A stretch of 64,000 nucleotides of DNA from Lacipirellulaceae bacterium (lineage in GTDB: Bacteria > Planctomycetota > Planctomycetia > Pirellulales > Lacipirellulaceae): assembly GCA_040218535.1 (NCBI GenBank), contig JAVJRG010000005.1, positions 1,860,001 to 1,924,000 of the forward strand, written 5' to 3'. This document shows positions 32,456 through 39,316 of the stretch, in pieces (the stretch's first letter is position 1; each line of letters begins with the position of its first letter). Below the pieces are notes generated by a model that had not been told where the DNA came from, did no database searches, and saw only the letters and a list, made by a program, of their open reading frames with translations. Made by a program: the position numbers and the translations under genes.

Positions 32456-33883
32456 TTGCTTCATGGAACATTGTCGCTAGTTGCAGTTGGCGGCTTTATC
32501 GTCGTGATGATTGTGGTTGGCGTTCTGGCGGGGAGACGAGCCACTGGATCGGAAGAATTCCTCGTAGCTGGCCGGTCGCTGCCGCTTTGGCTCTGCACGG
32601 CTACATTAACGGCCACTTGGATGGGGGCTGGTACCGTGATCGGGGCCGCTGGAGCGGCTTACGAAGGCGGCATTTTGGGAGTCATTGCTGACCCGTTTGG
32701 GGCTGCTCTTTGTCTGACGATTGCCGGAACGTTCTATGTCCGTACGTTGCGCCGGATGCAGTTGCTCACCATTGCCGACTTTTTCCAGCTACGATTCAGT
32801 TCCAGCGTGGGAATCCTTTCCAGCGTTGCCCTGATTGTGCTGTACGTGGGATGGACTGCTGTCCAATTCAAAGCTTTCGGAACGGTCGCCGGTTCGCTGG
32901 TCGAGGTTGACCCCAGGCTAGCGATTTCTTTAGGTGCGGTGATCATATTGATCTACACCGCAACGGGTGGCATGTGGGCGGTTGCGTTTACCGACGCGAT
33001 CCAGATTGTTCTGCTGCTGGTCGGACTGGTGATCATGCTGCCTTTGGTTGTTAGTAGTCTGGGAGGATTCGATGCCACGTTTGCGAAGCTCTCGACGGAG
33101 CAATTGCGCTTTACGCCAAGTGAGCCCACCGGTGCCGCGTGGCTCGAATACGTGCGTGCTTGGCTAATCATTGGACTTGGAAGCATCGCCACGCAAGACT
33201 TAATGCAGCGCAGCTTTTCTGCTCGTAGCGAGTCGGTCGCACAGGGATCTGCCTACATCGCTGCCGTGCTGTATCTTACTTTTGGGATGATTCCTGTGCT
33301 GCTCGGCTTGATCGGTGCTCACGCAATGCCAGGACTAGAAGACCCTGAAATGATTGTGCCTGAGTTGGCGTCGCAGCACCTTCACCCCGTCGGCGCGGTG
33401 ATTCTCGTCGGAGCGTTGCTCGCCGCAGTGATGAGTAGTGCTGACAGTGCGTTACTCGCTCCCGCGAGTGTTTTGAGTGCGAACATTCTACCTTTGTTCC
33501 GCCCTAACGCCTCTGAAAAACTCTCATTTGCCGTGGCGCGTTGGTCCATTCCAGTGATTGGCATGGCTGCGTTGGTCGTTGCATTGACGGCCGATAAAAT
33601 CTACGACCTGATGCTCAGCTCGTTCGAGCTGCCACTGGTGAGCTTGTTTGTGCCGTTCACAGCTGGCATTTGGTGGAAACGGGCCAACGCGACCGGCGCG
33701 CTCGCATCGATGCTCACCGGCGGAGTGGTGTGGGGACTTTGCCTAGCATTTGCTGGAGACTTGCCAGCCGAGCTCGTTGGGTTAGGGGCAAGCGCGTTGG
33801 CCTTGTTCGTCGTTTCGCTTGCCACCCAGCGGAGCGATCCGCCACGACCGCTGACTGATCGTGATGGAAAAGTCCTTGCTTAG
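32456..33883 (+). CDS. Sodium:solute symporter family transporter
   Basis: 475 aa integral membrane protein of the SSS (SLC5) family with about 13 hydrophobic segments. Visible family features are GFIVVMIVVGVLAGRRATGSEEFLVAGRSL at the first helix and loop, TATWMGAGTVIG, YTATGGMWAVAFTDAIQ and GALLAAVMSSADSALLAPAS (sodium-site segment). The start is probably the TTG at 32456 with AGAGG seven bases upstream. An earlier TTG at 32411 lacks a ribosome binding site, and no ATG is in frame. The solute is unknown: family members carry sugars, amino acids, nucleobases or carboxylates. It is convergent with the catabolic genes at 33941-37575, which suggests it imports their substrate (inference). Confidence 0.85.
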   Translation: MLHGTLSLVAVGGFIVVMIVVGVLAGRRATGSEEFLVAGRSLPLWLCTATLTATWMGAGTVIGAAGAAYEGGILGVIADPFGAALCLTIAGTFYVRTLRRMQLLTIADFFQLRFSSSVGILSSVALIVLYVGWTAVQFKAFGTVAGSLVEVDPRLAISLGAVIILIYTATGGMWAVAFTDAIQIVLLLVGLVIMLPLVVSSLGGFDATFAKLSTEQLRFTPSEPTGAAWLEYVRAWLIIGLGSIATQDLMQRSFSARSESVAQGSAYIAAVLYLTFGMIPVLLGLIGAHAMPGLEDPEMIVPELASQHLHPVGAVILVGALLAAVMSSADSALLAPASVLSANILPLFRPNASEKLSFAVARWSIPVIGMAALVVALTADKIYDLMLSSFELPLVSLFVPFTAGIWWKRANATGALASMLTGGVVWGLCLAFAGDLPAELVGLGASALALFVVSLATQRSDPPRPLTDRDGKVLA

Positions 33884-33940
33884 CTAGACGAAGCTCAGTG
33901 TTTTTGGTGAGTCGCAGTCCTTCGACGATTTGGAAATCGA

Positions 33941-35341
33941 TTAGCTGAGCAAACCTTCGGCGCGCAAGTCTTCTCCTACCTGAATCATGGCTTTGCGTAG
34001 AACTTCGATGCAGAAATCGATCTCTTCGCGTGTCAAGGTGAGGGGGGGCGATAAGACGTTCAGGTGGACGACTGGCCTGATGATCAGTCCCATCTCCTCG
34101 CAGCGATTCGAGATTTTCTTGCCGATGTTCATCGCGTCAGGGAAAGGTTGCTTCGTCTGTTTGTCGGCGACGCTCTCGACACAAACCATATAATGACTGC
34201 CTCGTACGTCGCCAACCGTGGGTAGGTCTCGCAGCTCCTCTAACTTTTCGCGTAGGTAGGGGCCGTCTTTTCGCACTTTTTCGAGCAGATTCTCACGCTC
34301 GATGATTTCGATGTTCTTGAGTGCTGCCGCACACGAGACGGGATGGCCCGAATAGGTGAAGCCATTGGCGAAGACACGGTCGGGATTCGGCGCAGCGATC
34401 GTTTCGTAGATCTCCTCGGAGAAGAGCACGGCACCCAACGGTACATAACCAGAGGTGATTCCTTTCGCGCAAGTGATGATGTCTGGCTGAATGCCGAAGA
34501 CTGATTCTGAGGCAAACCATTCGCCAAGTCGGCCAAACGCCGTCACGACCTCATCGGAGACGTAGAGAATATCGTTCTCTTTGCAGAGCTCGTGGGTCCG
34601 ACGATGGTATCCGGCTGGAGGAACCACCACGCCGCCGGCGCCCATCACTGGTTCGGCGAAGAAAGCGGCGACATTCTCAGCACCCAACTCATGTATTTTT
34701 GCCTTCATCTCGTCGAGAAGATGGTCGCAAAACTCCGACTCCGACATGCCCTCCGGTGCACGGTAGTAATTCGGGCACGAGAGGTGGTGGATGGTGTCGG
34801 TAATGTAAGCAAACTCCGGCACGCGGTCGGACTTCTTACCGCCAATCGACATCGAGAGATACGTCGAGCCGTGATAGGCCGCCTTGCGAGACAAGATGTG
34901 ACGCTTCTCTGTCTTGCCGCGACAGCTTTGGTAAAACTGGATCAGGCGGTAAGCACTGTCGATGGCGGTTGAGCCACCCGTCGTGAAGAAAACGTGATTC
35001 AGCGAGCCAGGTGCCAGGTCAGCCAGGAGGCCAGCGAGCTGAGCGGCAGGTGCCGAGGTCATGTCGCAAAAGGTATTCGAGTAGGCAAGTTTCTTGGCCT
35101 GATCGGCGATGGCGTCAGCCATTTCCTGCCGGCCAAGTCCAATGTTCGTGCACCACAAACCGCCAACGGCATCGATATACTGTTTGCCGTCTGCGTCGTA
35201 AACGGTCGCCCCCTCGCCGCTTGTGATCGTCAGTGATCCCTCCTCGCGAAAGGAATCAAAGTGCGTAAAGGGATGAAGAAGATGCTTACGATCAGTCTCC
35301 CAAATGTCCTGATTCGGGATGGTTTCGACGTCAAAATTCAT
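33941..35341 (-). CDS. Class III aminotransferase (omega-amino acid:pyruvate type)
   Basis: 466 aa PLP enzyme of fold type I. Landmarks: DRKHLLHPFTHFDSF at the start, GGLWCTNIGLG, FFTTGGSTAIDSAYR (phosphate binding), YHGSTYLS, VSDEVVTAFGRLGEWF (PLP Asp), and ITCAKGITSGYVPLGAV, whose Lys forms the Schiff base. The family moves terminal amino groups of beta-alanine, putrescine, GABA, ornithine or taurine to pyruvate or 2-oxoglutarate. The ATG at 35341 follows GGAG five bases upstream; a TTG 18 bases earlier is less likely. It is the third gene after the carbamoylase and the arginine-deiminase-fold hydrolase, so its substrate is probably the amine those enzymes release. Confidence 0.9.
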   Translation of the reverse strand: MNFDVETIPNQDIWETDRKHLLHPFTHFDSFREEGSLTITSGEGATVYDADGKQYIDAVGGLWCTNIGLGRQEMADAIADQAKKLAYSNTFCDMTSAPAAQLAGLLADLAPGSLNHVFFTTGGSTAIDSAYRLIQFYQSCRGKTEKRHILSRKAAYHGSTYLSMSIGGKKSDRVPEFAYITDTIHHLSCPNYYRAPEGMSESEFCDHLLDEMKAKIHELGAENVAAFFAEPVMGAGGVVVPPAGYHRRTHELCKENDILYVSDEVVTAFGRLGEWFASESVFGIQPDIITCAKGITSGYVPLGAVLFSEEIYETIAAPNPDRVFANGFTYSGHPVSCAAALKNIEIIERENLLEKVRKDGPYLREKLEELRDLPTVGDVRGSHYMVCVESVADKQTKQPFPDAMNIGKKISNRCEEMGLIIRPVVHLNVLSPPLTLTREEIDFCIEVLRKAMIQVGEDLRAEGLLS

Positions 35342-35388
35342 AACTGCTCCGGATTGCAAAGAATCTTCTCTAGTCCATGTGGCAATCT

Positions 35389-36321
35389 CTATCTCGAACC
35401 GTTGTCTCCACCGACTCGGTCACGGCGTAGGGCCTGGCACATGCAGTGCACTCCTCCACCACCGGCGGTGAACATGCTGACTTCGGGATCGATAATCTTT
35501 AGGCCGTGTGCCCTGCAGCGGTCTTTCAGCACTTTGCTCGACCGCGGGAGAAGAACCCTACCGTCCCCCAATGCGACGACGTTCACCTCGAGCTGCATAA
35601 GCGCGCTAAAAGGGATATCTATGATTTCGATGTTGAGTGATTGCAAAAAGTCGACGAGGTGGTCTTCCACAGCTTCGGTACACAGAACGGCAAGCTTTTC
35701 ATCAAGCATTGCGAACATGACATCCAGATGCAGGAAAAACGGATCAAACTGATAGCTGACAAACTTCCAGCCTTCCGCTTCGATCCAGCCGCGAACTTGC
35801 GCGATGCCTGATTCGCTGGTCCGATCACCGCTCGTTCCGCACAGCACAACGCCAGGTTCGACGACCATGAAGTCGCCCCCTTCGAAGCTGCCGGCTGTCA
35901 CTACATCGTAGACGGGGATTTCATTCCGTCCGAAGAAGTCGACGACGGCTCGCCACTCTCCGCGACGCCAGGGGCTCTGCAACTGCGTAATGATTGGCCC
36001 CCAAGGCGTCATCACCGAGGAGTCACGCGCGTAGACCTGATAGGGCAGCGAACCATCGGCTTCGAGAAAGTGGCAGGTGACGCCAGCTTCTTCATACGCC
36101 TGAACCATCTCACCGTACTGAGCCGCCGCTTCCGTTGGTTCGAATCCAAGGCCCATCCGCAACGAGCGGCGTGCCATCGCGTTGCCCGTTTGCCAGGTGT
36201 AGTGATCCCTCGGGCCAATGAGTACATCACGGAGTGTACCAAATTCGCTATCCACCCCCCACGGAGACAGCGCACTGGTGCCACCATTAGCCTCTCGACG
36301 ACGAAGTGGAACAAAACTCAT
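35389..36321 (-). CDS. Arginine deiminase/dimethylargininase-fold hydrolase
   Basis: 310 aa enzyme of the guanidine-modifying superfamily (COG1834-like). Catalytic landmarks: YARDSS (D100), EGGD (147-150), the His in FFLHLDVMF (H198), and the nucleophile in GGGGVHCMCQ (C293). Members hydrolyse guanidino groups to ureido groups: arginine or methylarginine to citrulline, or other guanidino acids. No amidinotransferase-specific feature can be told from the sequence. ATG 36321 with AGG upstream. It lies 15 bases after the carbamoylase gene and 47 bases before the aminotransferase, one transcript. The product, an N-carbamoyl compound, would be a natural substrate for the carbamoylase. Confidence 0.82.
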   Translation of the reverse strand: MSFVPLRRREANGGTSALSPWGVDSEFGTLRDVLIGPRDHYTWQTGNAMARRSLRMGLGFEPTEAAAQYGEMVQAYEEAGVTCHFLEADGSLPYQVYARDSSVMTPWGPIITQLQSPWRRGEWRAVVDFFGRNEIPVYDVVTAGSFEGGDFMVVEPGVVLCGTSGDRTSESGIAQVRGWIEAEGWKFVSYQFDPFFLHLDVMFAMLDEKLAVLCTEAVEDHLVDFLQSLNIEIIDIPFSALMQLEVNVVALGDGRVLLPRSSKVLKDRCRAHGLKIIDPEVSMFTAGGGGVHCMCQALRRDRVGGDNGSR

Positions 36322-36336
36322 CTTTGACCTGGTTCC

Positions 36337-37575
36337 TCAATCTGCATTCGCACGCTCTAGCATGGCATGCAGCAAGACATTACAACCGGCCTCGATGTCG
36401 GCGGGGCTCGCGTCCTCAGCCTCGTTGTGCGAGATACCATCAGCACAAGGGATGAAAATCATGCTTGTCGGAGCAACATGCGAAACATAAACCGCATCGT
36501 GCCCGGCACCTGAAACCATTTCGCGATGCGGATAGCCAAGCATCTCAACGGCACCACGTACGGCACTAATGCAATGGGCGTCGAAAGCCACCGCCGATGA
36601 ATGCCATTCGTCATCCACTTGATAGCCGAGATTAGCGCGTTCAGCTTCTTCTTGGACGATCGTCCGCATGCCGGCATCCATCGCTTCGAGGCTGCTTTGC
36701 TCAGGGTGCCGCAGATCGACGGCGAGTTTCAGTTCTTCAGGCACGGTATTTCGGCTACCAGGGACGACGCTGATGTCTCCGAAGGTTACCCGTGCCTCGG
36801 GAGCATGTTGGGAACCAAGTTCATAGAGTCGAGCCAAAATGCGATGAAACGCCATGAACGGGTCGCGCCGGACTTCCATCGGGGTTGTGCCCGCGTGTAC
36901 CGGCTGCCCAAATAGCTTGACGTCATACCATCGCATCCCCTGCACACCGGTGACAACGCCGATGGTCAGACCTTCGTTTTCCAAAACGGGCCCCTGTTCG
37001 ATGTGCATTTCGAAAGCGGCCCGAATTGGGAAAGGTCGACAGGGCTCCGAGCCCGCGTAGCCCAGTCGGTTGAGTTCCTGACCAATGGTGATGCCCTCCT
37101 TATCTGCTCGGTTGTGTCCATACTCCAAGTCGAATTGCCCCGACCAGACGCCCGACCCGATCATTGCAGGAGAGAAGCGTGCACCTTCCTCATTGGTCCA
37201 GTTCAAGATTTCTAGCGGAGCAAGGGTCTCAACTCCCGCATCGTTGAGAGTTCTGATCACTTCCAGAGCGCCCAACACGCCCAAGATGCCGTCATACTTC
37301 CCACCGGTTGGTTGCGTGTCGAGGTGCGAGCCTGCGACGACCGGCGGCAGGTCGCTGTTGGTTCCAGGACGTCGGGCAAACATGTTGCCCATCTCGTCGA
37401 CTCGCACCGTCAGACCGGCTTGCTCGCACCAGTCGCGAAATATCCTGCGGACTGTGCCGTCGCCATCGGTCAGTGCTTGTCGATTGCATCCACCTCGTTC
37501 GGTTGCACCAACACGGGCGACTTCCATGATGGCGTCCCAAAGTCGTTTTCCGTTGATGCGTAGAGAATCGGTCAT
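36337..37575 (-). CDS. M20-family hydantoinase/carbamoylase-type amidase
   Basis: 412 aa dinuclear metal hydrolase of the N-carbamoyl-amino-acid hydrolase, ureidopropionase and allantoate amidohydrolase group. Metal and substrate motifs: GSHLDTQPTGGKYDG (His and Asp), NWTNEEGARF (Glu pair), FEMHIEQGPVLENEG (His), and GAGHDAVYVSHVAPTSMIF (C-terminal His). The Glu-His-Ile-Glu-Gln-Gly-Pro signature separates this group from simple peptidases. It removes a carbamoyl group, releasing CO2, ammonia and an amine. It is the first gene of the minus run, diverging from the aldehyde dehydrogenase at 37856, with a shared promoter region of about 280 bases between them. Confidence 0.87.
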   Translation of the reverse strand: MTDSLRINGKRLWDAIMEVARVGATERGGCNRQALTDGDGTVRRIFRDWCEQAGLTVRVDEMGNMFARRPGTNSDLPPVVAGSHLDTQPTGGKYDGILGVLGALEVIRTLNDAGVETLAPLEILNWTNEEGARFSPAMIGSGVWSGQFDLEYGHNRADKEGITIGQELNRLGYAGSEPCRPFPIRAAFEMHIEQGPVLENEGLTIGVVTGVQGMRWYDVKLFGQPVHAGTTPMEVRRDPFMAFHRILARLYELGSQHAPEARVTFGDISVVPGSRNTVPEELKLAVDLRHPEQSSLEAMDAGMRTIVQEEAERANLGYQVDDEWHSSAVAFDAHCISAVRGAVEMLGYPHREMVSGAGHDAVYVSHVAPTSMIFIPCADGISHNEAEDASPADIEAGCNVLLHAMLERANAD

Positions 37576-37855
37576 CCGTTGGCCTTTGTACTGTTACAAA
37601 TCGACTGGAATGAAAGGGATAGAAGCAGCTTTTTAGCTTGAAGCTATAAGCCTATTCTCTCTATTGTTGTCCCGAAAGCAATCGTGCGGAAATCAGTGAA
37701 GTGGGTGCGCATTCCAGAGTTTGCGGTTCAACGAACCGAATCGTCGTGGGAAGAGAAGGCTCGATTATCGACCACTCAGAAGGTGTCAACAACTGCCTGT
37801 AAACATGTAGAATCAACCTGTGATTACTCCAACGAAAAATGATCCAGAGAAGAGC

Positions 37856-39316
37856 ATGACTGTCGTTCCCCAACCGGAAGTGCGCTACACAGATTGCTTC
37901 ATCGGCGGCAAGTGGATTCCTTCAGCCAGTAGAAAGACCTTAGAAACGATTCATCCTGCCACCGAAGAGACTGTTGCCGAGGTTGCGGAGGGTGATAAAG
38001 AAGATATCGACCTTGCTGTCCGCGCTGCTCGATCACAATTCGACGGCGGGGAGTGGCACCGGATGGATGCCCGTGATCGCGGAACACTGATCCTCAGACT
38101 TGCCGAACTCGTTGAACAGAATGCGGAAGAGTTGTCCGCACTGGAAACGCTCGACAACGGCAAACCGATTCGCGACGCGCAGAGTGACGATCTCCCGGCC
38201 GTCGTCGATTGCCTACGGTACTATGCCGGCTGGTGCGACAAGATCCACGGCGACACGATTCCATTCAGAGGCGACTACCTCTGCTACACAAAACTCGAAC
38301 CTATTGGCGTGGTCGGTCAAATCATCCCATGGAATTTTCCCGCCCTGATGGCTGCTTGGAAATGGGGTCCGGCACTTGCCGCCGGATGCACGATCGTCAT
38401 GAAACCGGCCGAGCAAACACCACTAAGTTGCTTGCGTATGGCTAGCCTCGCCCAGGAGGTGGGTATTCCCGACGGAGTGATCAATGTGGTCCCCGGGTTC
38501 GGGCCAACCGCCGGGGCAGCACTTGTTTCGCATCCCGGTATCGACAAGATTGCGTTCACCGGTGAGGGGACCACAGCAAAGCTCATTCAACGTGAAGCCG
38601 CAGACTCGATGAAGCGGTTGACCTTCGAACTGGGAGGGAAGAACCCCAACATTGTTTTCGCTGATGCTGATCTCGACTCAACGATCCCGGGAGTTCACGC
38701 AGCACAGTTTTATAATCAAGGACAGTCATGCAGCGCAGGCAGTCGGCTCTTCGTGCAGGACGATGTTTACGACGAAGTCGTTGAGCGACTTGTTGCCATG
38801 AATACAGATCATCGGCTCGGAAACCCCTTCGATCTGGCAACTGAGCAAGGCCCACAAGTGGATGAAGCGCAATTATCCAAGACGCTCAAGTACATTGACA
38901 TTGGCAAGGCCGAAGGTGCCAAGTGCGTGAGCGGAGGCAAGCGTTGGGGAGAGCGTGGCTATTTTGTGGAGCCTACGCTATTTGCCGACGTGAATGACGA
39001 GATGCGGATCGCGCGAGAGGAGATCTTTGGTCCCGTCCTTAGCGTGCTCCGGTTCAAGGACGAGGAAGAAGTTCTACGACGCGCCAACAACACTCGCTAT
39101 GGTCTGGCCTCCGCAGTTTGGACTTCTGACCTTTCTAGGGCTCACCGAGTCGCTAGCTCATTACGCGCGGGGACCGTTTGGGTGAACTCCTACGACGTGT
39201 TCGACGCTGCCGCGCCGTTCGGAGGTTTCGGAGAAAGCGGCATCGGCCGCGAACTTGGGCCAATCGGGCTACTAGCTTACCTAGAAAACAAGACGGTAAC
39301 CGTGTCTACCACATAG
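37856..39316 (+). CDS. Aldehyde dehydrogenase family protein
   Basis: 486 aa NAD(P)-dependent aldehyde dehydrogenase. Landmarks: [21 protein letters not shown], the Rossmann-type [11 protein letters not shown], the general base Glu in FELGGKNP, and the nucleophile Cys in [10 protein letters not shown]-terminal [13 protein letters not shown] and [15 protein letters not shown] are typical of the betaine/aminoaldehyde and indoleacetaldehyde group. Start: the ATG at 37856 follows AGAGAAGAG; a GTG at 37820 is also in frame but has no ribosome site. It diverges from the carbamoylase gene and is suited to oxidise the aldehyde made by the class III aminotransferase. A weak hairpin with a T-rich tail follows the stop. 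Confidence 0.9.

What the first reader, a model, noticed from the sequence alone, without database searches (positions are those of the whole stretch)
32456..39316. Possible complete guanidino-compound degradation route
Seen: a minus-strand run of carbamoylase-type M20 amidase, arginine-deiminase-fold hydrolase with D100, H198 and C293 present, and class III aminotransferase; a divergent aldehyde dehydrogenase; and a convergent sodium symporter. Known family chemistry gives guanidine to ureido, ureido to amine plus CO2 and ammonia, amine to aldehyde, aldehyde to acid. Inference: the five genes import and degrade a guanidino acid (arginine derivative, guanidinobutyrate, guanidinopropionate or similar) without using urea or carbamoyl phosphate. 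No dihydropyrimidinase or hydantoinase gene is seen, which argues against the usual pyrimidine pathway.
Basis: partly seen in the sequence, partly recalled or inferred. Interest (0 to 1): 0.65.

Follow-up and report, generated by a model that had tools for sequence, protein, structure and literature searches.

The report
Urea-free breakdown of 4-guanidinobutyrate
A small gene set in a planctomycete bacterium, shared with many marine bacteria, most likely breaks down the arginine product 4-guanidinobutyrate in two steps that release ammonia directly instead of urea, a route that I could not find described.

Summary
The core is a pair, a DDAH/ADI-fold hydrolase plus an M20 carbamoylase, adjacent and same-strand in 55 of 57 fetched loci outside one sister clade of the hydrolase (0 of 23 inside it). 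In marine Gammaproteobacteria the pair sits with 2-ketoarginine decarboxylase (AruI) and, in some, GABA transaminase and succinate-semialdehyde dehydrogenase. One Alteromonas locus holds the set from AruI to succinate-semialdehyde dehydrogenase in 15 kb, and its genome gave no ureohydrolase match. This points to 4-guanidinobutyrate -> 4-ureidobutyrate + NH3 -> GABA + CO2 + NH3, a urea-free stand-in for guanidinobutyrase. In the window the pair comes with a class III aminotransferase and a sodium symporter; no AruI, ureohydrolase or urease was found in the genome, so it most likely scavenges imported 4-guanidinobutyrate. The aldehyde dehydrogenase is ALDH2-like, below the succinate-semialdehyde dehydrogenase cut-off, and missing beside the same module in a second planctomycete, so its part is unproven. 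Eight searches of one open-access library found no description. No activity is shown; all rests on sequence and context.

The parts
36337..37575 (-). M20 hydantoinase/carbamoylase-family amidase; predicted 4-ureidobutyrate (N-carbamoyl-GABA) amidohydrolase
   Evidence: TIGR01879 412 bits > 204; NF006769 608 > 452. Adjacent to the hydrolase in 55 of 80 relatives. Alignment A1 of 8 rows.
35389..36321 (-). DDAH/ADI-fold Cys hydrolase; predicted 4-guanidinobutyrate deiminase
   Evidence: PF19420, PF02274; invariant Y94 R99 D100 R119 E147 R167 H198 D200 C293 in 30 of 30; model pLDDT 89.3; ADI Z 29.8, DDAH Z 28.3.
33941..35359 (-). Class III (omega) aminotransferase; predicted GABA (or other omega-amine) transaminase
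   Evidence: NF005447 (PRK07036, named only 'aminotransferase') 733 bits > 618; 83% identical copy in the same place in L001.
32456..33883 (+). Sodium:solute symporter; predicted importer of the guanidino acid
   Evidence: SSF PF00474 2.2e-48; 72% identical convergent copy in L001. Cargo inferred only.
37820..39316 (+). ALDH1/2-type aldehyde dehydrogenase, divergent; part in the route unproven
   Evidence: Aldedh 1.1e-179; best solved relatives mitochondrial ALDH2; SSADH model 401.9 bits < 646.35; not found beside the L001 module.
37576..37819 (.). Divergent intergenic region between M20 and ALDH, G+C 0.459 against 0.542 for the window
   Evidence: no promoter scan was made.

Best explanation
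The hydrolase and the M20 amidase form a two-step, urea-free guanidino-acid module. The hydrolase, using Cys293/His198/Asp100/Glu147, deiminates 4-guanidinobutyrate to 4-ureidobutyrate and NH3; the M20 amidase splits that into 4-aminobutyrate (GABA), CO2 and NH3. In marine Gammaproteobacteria this stands in for guanidinobutyrase in the arginine transaminase pathway (AruH, AruI, guanidinobutyraldehyde dehydrogenase before it; GABA transaminase and succinate-semialdehyde dehydrogenase after it). In the window's planctomycete, where no AruI or ureohydrolase was found, the module works as a scavenger: the symporter imports 4-guanidinobutyrate and the class III aminotransferase turns GABA into succinic semialdehyde, oxidised by the divergent ALDH or another one. 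Shown: gene families, conserved catalytic residues, gene linkage, failure to find the alternative enzymes. Inferred: every reaction, the substrate, and the symporter's cargo.
For: (1) Linkage: M20 beside the hydrolase in 55 of 57 loci outside one sister clade (L043 is cut by its contig end; in L057 none was found), in 0 of 23 in that clade. (2) Upstream enzyme: AruI-like gene within the fetched stretch in 11 of those 57 (about 0.26 expected for one AruI per 4.5-Mb genome; relatedness ignored), over the curated cut-off of 500 in 6 of 6 proteins scanned (685-853 bits). 10 of 15 carrier genomes have one over cut-off somewhere, 0 of 14 controls. The stretches of L019, L025 and L029 end within about 1 kb of an AruI or just inside it (overlaps exact). 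Five Haliea/Parahaliea loci have a compact AruI-AruH-M20-hydrolase order (L002, L006, L010, L012, L013). (3) Downstream enzymes: GABA transaminase over the TIGR00700 cut-off in L011 and L029, SSADH over the TIGR01780 cut-off in L011, L029 and L048. (4) L107 (Alteromonas sp. C1M14): hydrolase, M20, ALDH, AruH-like, GabT, SSADH and AruI in about 13.5 kb. (5) No competitor: the genomes of L019, L024 and L029 carry AruI but gave no PF00491 ureohydrolase match; nor did the window's genome, which also gave no urease. (6) Active site: the residues aligned with PaDDAH R85 and R132 are invariant Arg (R119, R167), while the residue aligned with PaDDAH D60 is an invariant Tyr (Y94). By recall R85/R132 hold the alpha-carboxylate and D60 the alpha-amino group, so this fits a guanidino acid without an alpha-amino group. 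(7) Same four-gene module without the ALDH in L001, with other flanks.
Against: No activity data. 12 of 17 carrier genomes also have a ureohydrolase (one asked-for genome, L011, not held), so the route is not exclusive; completeness of those genomes was not told. Five of 15 carrier genomes gave no AruI over cut-off: L001, L032, L048, L049, L054, and in L003, L005, L034 and L036 AruI lies far from the pair or on another contig; the Vibrio type has quite different neighbours, so the substrate may differ there. AruI homologues can prefer other 2-oxo acids: a passage of PMC7268258 reports sevenfold more activity of a Sinorhizobium homologue on 5-amino-2-oxopentanoate. The SSADH and GabT hits pass the broad models but not the stricter single-function models (for example 727 of 828 and 625 of 724). 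The three AruH-like proteins scanned reach no cut-off among the models listed. The window's aminotransferase is not of the GabT type of L011/L029 (NF005376 224 of 676), its ALDH is not an SSADH by cut-off, and no gene of its genome passes the SSADH cut-off. The trees place the planctomycete pair differently, with weak support in one (83/77 against 95/86). Of the 23 M20-less loci, 9 are cut within 1.3 kb of the hydrolase on one side (lengths), so 0 of 23 is partly a limit of the data.
Confidence: 0.7

Rival explanations
1. Same chemistry, other chain length: the window's module degrades 3-guanidinopropionate via N-carbamoyl-beta-alanine and beta-alanine.
For: The M20 amidase is close to a solved N-carbamoyl-beta-alanine amidohydrolase (8c46, 3e-130); solved relatives of the aminotransferase include a beta-alanine:pyruvate transaminase (4b98, 9.3e-68); no AruI over cut-off in the genome.
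Against: In relatives the flanking enzymes are those of C4 compounds: AruI before, GabT and SSADH after. The window's ALDH is below the methylmalonate-semialdehyde dehydrogenase cut-off (252 of 448.5).
Confidence: 0.12
2. The aminotransferase and ALDH act first: imported agmatine is transaminated to 4-guanidinobutyraldehyde and oxidised to 4-guanidinobutyrate, then hydrolase and M20 make GABA.
For: Solved relatives of the aminotransferase include a polyamine:pyruvate transaminase (9j4z); the ALDH is of the broad ALDH2 type; several Microbulbifer and one Thalassotalea carrier have a FAD-dependent DAO-family oxidase, an ALDH and a weakly GadC-like permease near the pair.
Against: In L011 and L029 the class III aminotransferase is a GABA transaminase paired with SSADH, in L048 another one is paired with SSADH; ALDH not beside the L001 module; no arginine decarboxylase SpeA over cut-off in the genome, so agmatine would have to be imported or made otherwise.
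Confidence: 0.15
3. The M20 enzyme is a beta-ureidopropionase of pyrimidine breakdown (or an allantoate enzyme), and the hydrolase is an unrelated neighbour, for example a dimethylargininase.
For: The best family's name is 'allantoate amidohydrolase'; a hydantoinase/dihydropyrimidinase-type gene stands elsewhere in the genome, with no carbamoylase read among the ORFs of 230 aa or more in 17 kb around it.
Against: 55 of 57 adjacency with the hydrolase; the allantoate step is probably covered by two other M20 genes beside an allantoinase-like gene, a cupin and a xanthine-dehydrogenase-like gene (roles read from sequence); hydrolase far below the three dimethylargininase cut-offs.
Confidence: 0.06
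4. The hydrolase is an amidinotransferase, making rather than breaking a guanidino compound.
For: Same fold: SxtG Z 27.5 and glycine amidinotransferase 26.9 against ADI 29.8; fold does not decide.
Against: Profile search: DDAH 1.9e-17, ADI 8.9e-11, glycine amidinotransferase 0.017; invariant E147 in an EGGD motif, Glu also in the DDAH and ADI rows, where amidinotransferases have Asp (recalled, not tested); the partner is a carbamoylase-family hydrolase.
Confidence: 0.03

Closest known systems
Arginine transaminase (AruH/AruI) pathway with guanidinobutyrase GbuA
   Same: Same proposed intermediates: 2-ketoarginine, 4-guanidinobutyraldehyde, 4-guanidinobutyrate, GABA; AruI genes, and in fewer loci GabT and SSADH genes, near the pair in marine relatives.
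   Different: The guanidino group would be removed by a Cys hydrolase plus an M20 amidase (2 NH3 + CO2), not by a ureohydrolase (urea). No AruI over cut-off and no ureohydrolase in the window's genome.
Agmatine deiminase plus N-carbamoylputrescine amidase
   Same: Same logic: deiminate, then remove the carbamoyl group.
   Different: The window protein matches DDAH_eukar and ADI in Pfam; the agmatine enzymes are another branch of the fold and a nitrilase-type amidase (recalled), and act on an amine, not an acid.
Dimethylargininase / arginine deiminase / arginine dihydrolase ArgZ-AgrE
   Same: Fold and catalytic set.
   Different: Scores far below the curated cut-offs (68 of 300, 45 of 489, 37 of 450); 15-23% structural identity; invariant Tyr where PaDDAH has D60.
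M20 carbamoylases (beta-ureidopropionase, L-carbamoylase, allantoate amidohydrolase)
   Same: Member of the hydantoinase/carbamoylase family; about 400 residues aligned with 5thw, 4wjb and 8c46.
   Different: Paired with the hydrolase gene (loci were selected by the hydrolase); predicted substrate 4-ureidobutyrate.

Membership tests
Dimethylargininase (DDAH) | Score over a curated NCBIfam cut-off | tested here: not met
   67.9 of 300, 58.9 of 340, 52.6 of 450 bits.
Arginine deiminase (ArcA) | Score over TIGR01078 cut-off | tested here: not met
   45 of 489.1 bits.
Guanidino-group modifying enzyme superfamily | Asp, Glu, His, Cys catalytic set in the fold | tested here: met
   D100, E147, H198, C293 invariant in 30 of 30, aligned to PaDDAH and ADI; Z 28-30 to ADI and PaDDAH.
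Amidinotransferase | Closer in sequence to amidinotransferases than to hydrolases | tested here: not met
   E 0.017 against 1.9e-17 for DDAH. Fold alone does not separate them.
Hydantoinase/carbamoylase M20 family | TIGR01879 over cut-off | tested here: met
   412 bits, cut-off 204.
Allantoate deiminase AllC | TIGR03176 over cut-off | tested here: not met
   250.7 of 597.75 bits.
4-Guanidinobutyrase (ureohydrolase) | PF00491 protein in the window's genome | tested here: not met
   0 matches; the control rings in 9 of 14 genomes; genome 95.79% complete.
Arginine transaminase pathway (in the window's genome) | AruI (NF005712) over cut-off | tested here: not met
   Best 288.8 of 500 bits. Met in 10 of 15 carrier genomes.
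Succinate-semialdehyde dehydrogenase (window ALDH) | TIGR01780 over cut-off | tested here: not met
   401.9 of 646.35 bits.
Predicted 4-guanidinobutyrate deiminase / 4-ureidobutyrate amidohydrolase | Activity on these substrates | not testable with these tools
   Needs purified enzymes.

The most novel reading that the evidence does not exclude
An undescribed, urea-free branch of arginine breakdown: a DDAH-fold 4-guanidinobutyrate deiminase plus an M20 4-ureidobutyrate amidohydrolase stands in for guanidinobutyrase in marine Gammaproteobacteria, and the pair has moved, with a symporter and an aminotransferase, into rare planctomycetes as a self-contained scavenging cassette for 4-guanidinobutyrate.
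Probability: 0.6. Interest if true: 0.7.

Novelty: new variant of a known kind. Interest (0 to 1): 0.6.

Why it matters
If true, it gives functions to two protein subfamilies that the profile libraries used here leave unnamed or label 'allantoate amidohydrolase'. It explains how genomes with AruI but no detected ureohydrolase can finish arginine breakdown, and shows a route that frees both remaining guanidino nitrogens as ammonia without urea or urease. It makes direct predictions for cultured marine strains. A methyl 4-ureidobutyrate unit coupled to a bromophenol was isolated from a marine red alga (PMC3705374, passages seen), so the intermediate's skeleton exists in the sea.

Tried and rejected
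Fold comparison could not tell deiminase from amidinotransferase: ADI, DDAH, SxtG and glycine amidinotransferase all lie within Z 26.4-29.8. Foldseek alone gave the same mixed list. Model coordinates were not at hand, so no docking or distance was computed.

I considered N-carbamoylputrescine or agmatine as the direct substrate. I set it aside because Asn276 and Arg289 of the M20 enzyme (carboxylate-site roles recalled) are invariant in 8 of 8 rows, the two DDAH-like arginines in 30 of 30, and because AruI, GabT and SSADH are the neighbours.

I looked for specificity residues in A2. Alteromonas-type and Pseudomonas-type proteins, both AruI-linked, differ strongly around 43-56 and 115-123, so no simple rule emerged beyond Y94, R119 and R167.

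G+C of the five genes (0.55-0.574) is within the range of the window's 1-kb stretches (0.482-0.583, mean 0.542), so composition does not show transfer.

Literature: searches (eight of ten allowed, one open-access library) listed no paper that I recognised as describing a 4-guanidinobutyrate deiminase or bacterial 4-ureidobutyrate catabolism. I saw listings, starts of abstracts and matched passages (PMC7268258, PMC10741476, PMC2242806, PMC9772407, PMC3705374), no whole paper. Subscription journals and much old biochemistry are not covered.

Only the best 80 of 217 relatives were kept; all counts of loci refer to those 80. A2 holds 30 rows (the window and 29 loci).
Full report
What is there. The window (5.36-Mb genome G000, contig C5) holds a minus-strand run M20 amidase - DDAH/ADI-fold hydrolase - class III aminotransferase, with a convergent sodium symporter and a divergent aldehyde dehydrogenase. 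Pfam and NCBIfam give the families. Among the 80 relatives kept, the nearest is in Bythopirellula (L001; 76% in the hydrolase, 78% in M20); the next are Gammaproteobacteria.

The hydrolase. It is below the curated cut-off of each NCBIfam model it matches. Profile search finds DDAH at 1.9e-17, arginine deiminase at 8.9e-11 and glycine amidinotransferase at 0.017. An AlphaFold model (pLDDT 89.3, pTM 0.89) matches ADI (Z 29.8, 2.5 A over 278 residues), NnhA (28.7) and DDAH (28.3, 2.1 A over 251) best, but amidinotransferases are close behind. In 30 aligned rows Y94, R99, D100, R119, E147, R167, H198, D200 and C293 never vary. D100, E147, H198 and C293 align with the catalytic set of DDAH; R119 and R167 align with PaDDAH R85 and R132, and Y94 with PaDDAH D60 (PaDDAH numbers counted from the printed alignment, their roles recalled: R85/R132 alpha-carboxylate, D60 alpha-amino group). 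Keeping the carboxylate arginines and losing the alpha-amino anchor fits a guanidino acid without an alpha-amino group.

Linkage. Of the 80 relatives kept, 23 form one clade of the hydrolase tree and no M20 gene was found in their stretches (9 of these are cut within 1.3 kb of the hydrolase on one side). Of the other 57, 55 have it next door on the same strand; one exception is cut by a contig end (L043), in the other none was found (L057).

Substrate from both ends. An AruI-like gene is in the fetched stretch of 11 of the 57; 6 of 6 scanned proteins exceed the curated cut-off for 5-guanidino-2-oxopentanoate decarboxylase. In three more loci the stretch ends within about 1 kb of AruI or just inside it. 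Three arrangements occur: AruI-AruH-M20-hydrolase in Haliea and Parahaliea, hydrolase-M20-ALDH-AruH with a second block ending in AruI in Alteromonadales, and a looser one in two Pseudomonas. On the product side, L011 and L029 carry a GABA transaminase and an SSADH over the broad cut-offs, and L048 an SSADH with another class III aminotransferase; these pass TIGR00700 and TIGR01780 but not the stricter single-function models. L107 (Alteromonas sp. C1M14) shows the set in order: LysR, hydrolase, M20, ALDH, AruH-like, ferredoxin, reductase, GabT, SSADH, Rieske oxygenase, Gate-domain transporter, AruI. In three Microbulbifer genomes the same ALDH type sits beside AruI away from the pair (L103-L105), fitting a guanidinobutyraldehyde dehydrogenase.

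Missing competitor. Known 4-guanidinobutyrate breakdown uses a ureohydrolase that makes urea (passages of PMC2242806 and PMC9772407). The genomes of L019, L024 and L029, all with AruI, gave no PF00491 match; nor did those of L001 and L054 or the window's own. Against this, 12 of the 17 carrier genomes searched do have one, which may or may not be a guanidinobutyrase. A ureido-C4 acid can bind a carbamoyl-amino-acid hydrolase: human beta-ureidopropionase, of another fold (recalled), accommodates 4-ureidobutyric acid and is inhibited by it (passage and table row of PMC10741476); turnover was not shown there.

The window's version. Its genome (95.79% complete) gave no AruI over cut-off, no ureohydrolase, no urease alpha and no SpeA over cut-off. 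The likely source of substrate is therefore import, and the symporter travels with the module (72% identical, same place, in L001). The cassette is rare: 1 of 392 genomes of the phylum sample (E <= 1e-40) and 2 of 396 of the order sample (E <= 1e-30), its own counted in both; the one same-genus genome among the rows shown lacks it. Flanks differ between window and L001. Patchy presence and mostly gammaproteobacterial kin suggest transfer, but I did not test this formally and G+C is unremarkable.

The aldehyde dehydrogenase. It resembles mitochondrial ALDH2, fails the SSADH cut-off, and is not beside the module in L001. It may oxidise succinic semialdehyde, an upstream aldehyde, or be unrelated. 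No gene of the genome passes the SSADH cut-off.

Pyrimidine and purine rivals. A hydantoinase/dihydropyrimidinase-type gene lies about 600 kb away, with no carbamoylase read among the larger ORFs around it, so a role of the M20 enzyme in pyrimidine breakdown is not excluded. Two other M20 genes (35-36% identical) lie in what reads as a purine cluster, with an allantoinase-like gene, a cupin and a xanthine-dehydrogenase-like gene (names from reading, no profile scan), so allantoate is not needed as its substrate.

Verdict. The two-step core is well supported by context and its substrate is most likely 4-guanidinobutyrate (0.7). I call it a new variant of a known kind: known enzyme families and a known pathway, joined by a step pair that I could not find in print.

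Noticed in passing
L107:9264-16209; L018:14986-19224: A Rieske oxygenase (weakly GbcA-like, 128.7 bits against a cut-off of 670), with ferredoxin- and reductase-like genes (read, not scanned) and a Gate-domain transporter, is embedded in the Alteromonadales clusters. Its role is unexplained; N-demethylation of a methylated arginine is one guess.
   Followed up: partly
L060:5637-17573 and 22 more loci (clade of 23 rows): A sister clade of the hydrolase with no M20 gene found; 11 of the 23 loci have a glutamine-synthetase-like gene and 11 a class III aminotransferase of the PRK07480 type, and ABC-transporter-like genes follow in L060 (read, not scanned). Probably another guanidino or polyamine substrate.
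   Followed up: partly
L049, L050, L052, L054 (Psychromonas, Vibrio): The pair is followed by four to six conserved genes; in L054 these include an SBP_bac_3 binding protein, a class II aldolase and a weakly GhrA-like reductase, suggesting a different source of the guanidino acid.
   Followed up: no
L115:5185-12613 (G000:C12): What reads as a purine breakdown cluster with two M20 amidases, an allantoinase-like gene, a cupin and a xanthine-dehydrogenase-like gene in the same planctomycete.
   Followed up: partly
L011:5439-12174; L028, L036 and other Microbulbifer loci: A FAD-dependent DAO-family oxidase and a weakly GadC-like permease sit near the pair and an ALDH; possibly an agmatine entry branch.
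   Followed up: partly
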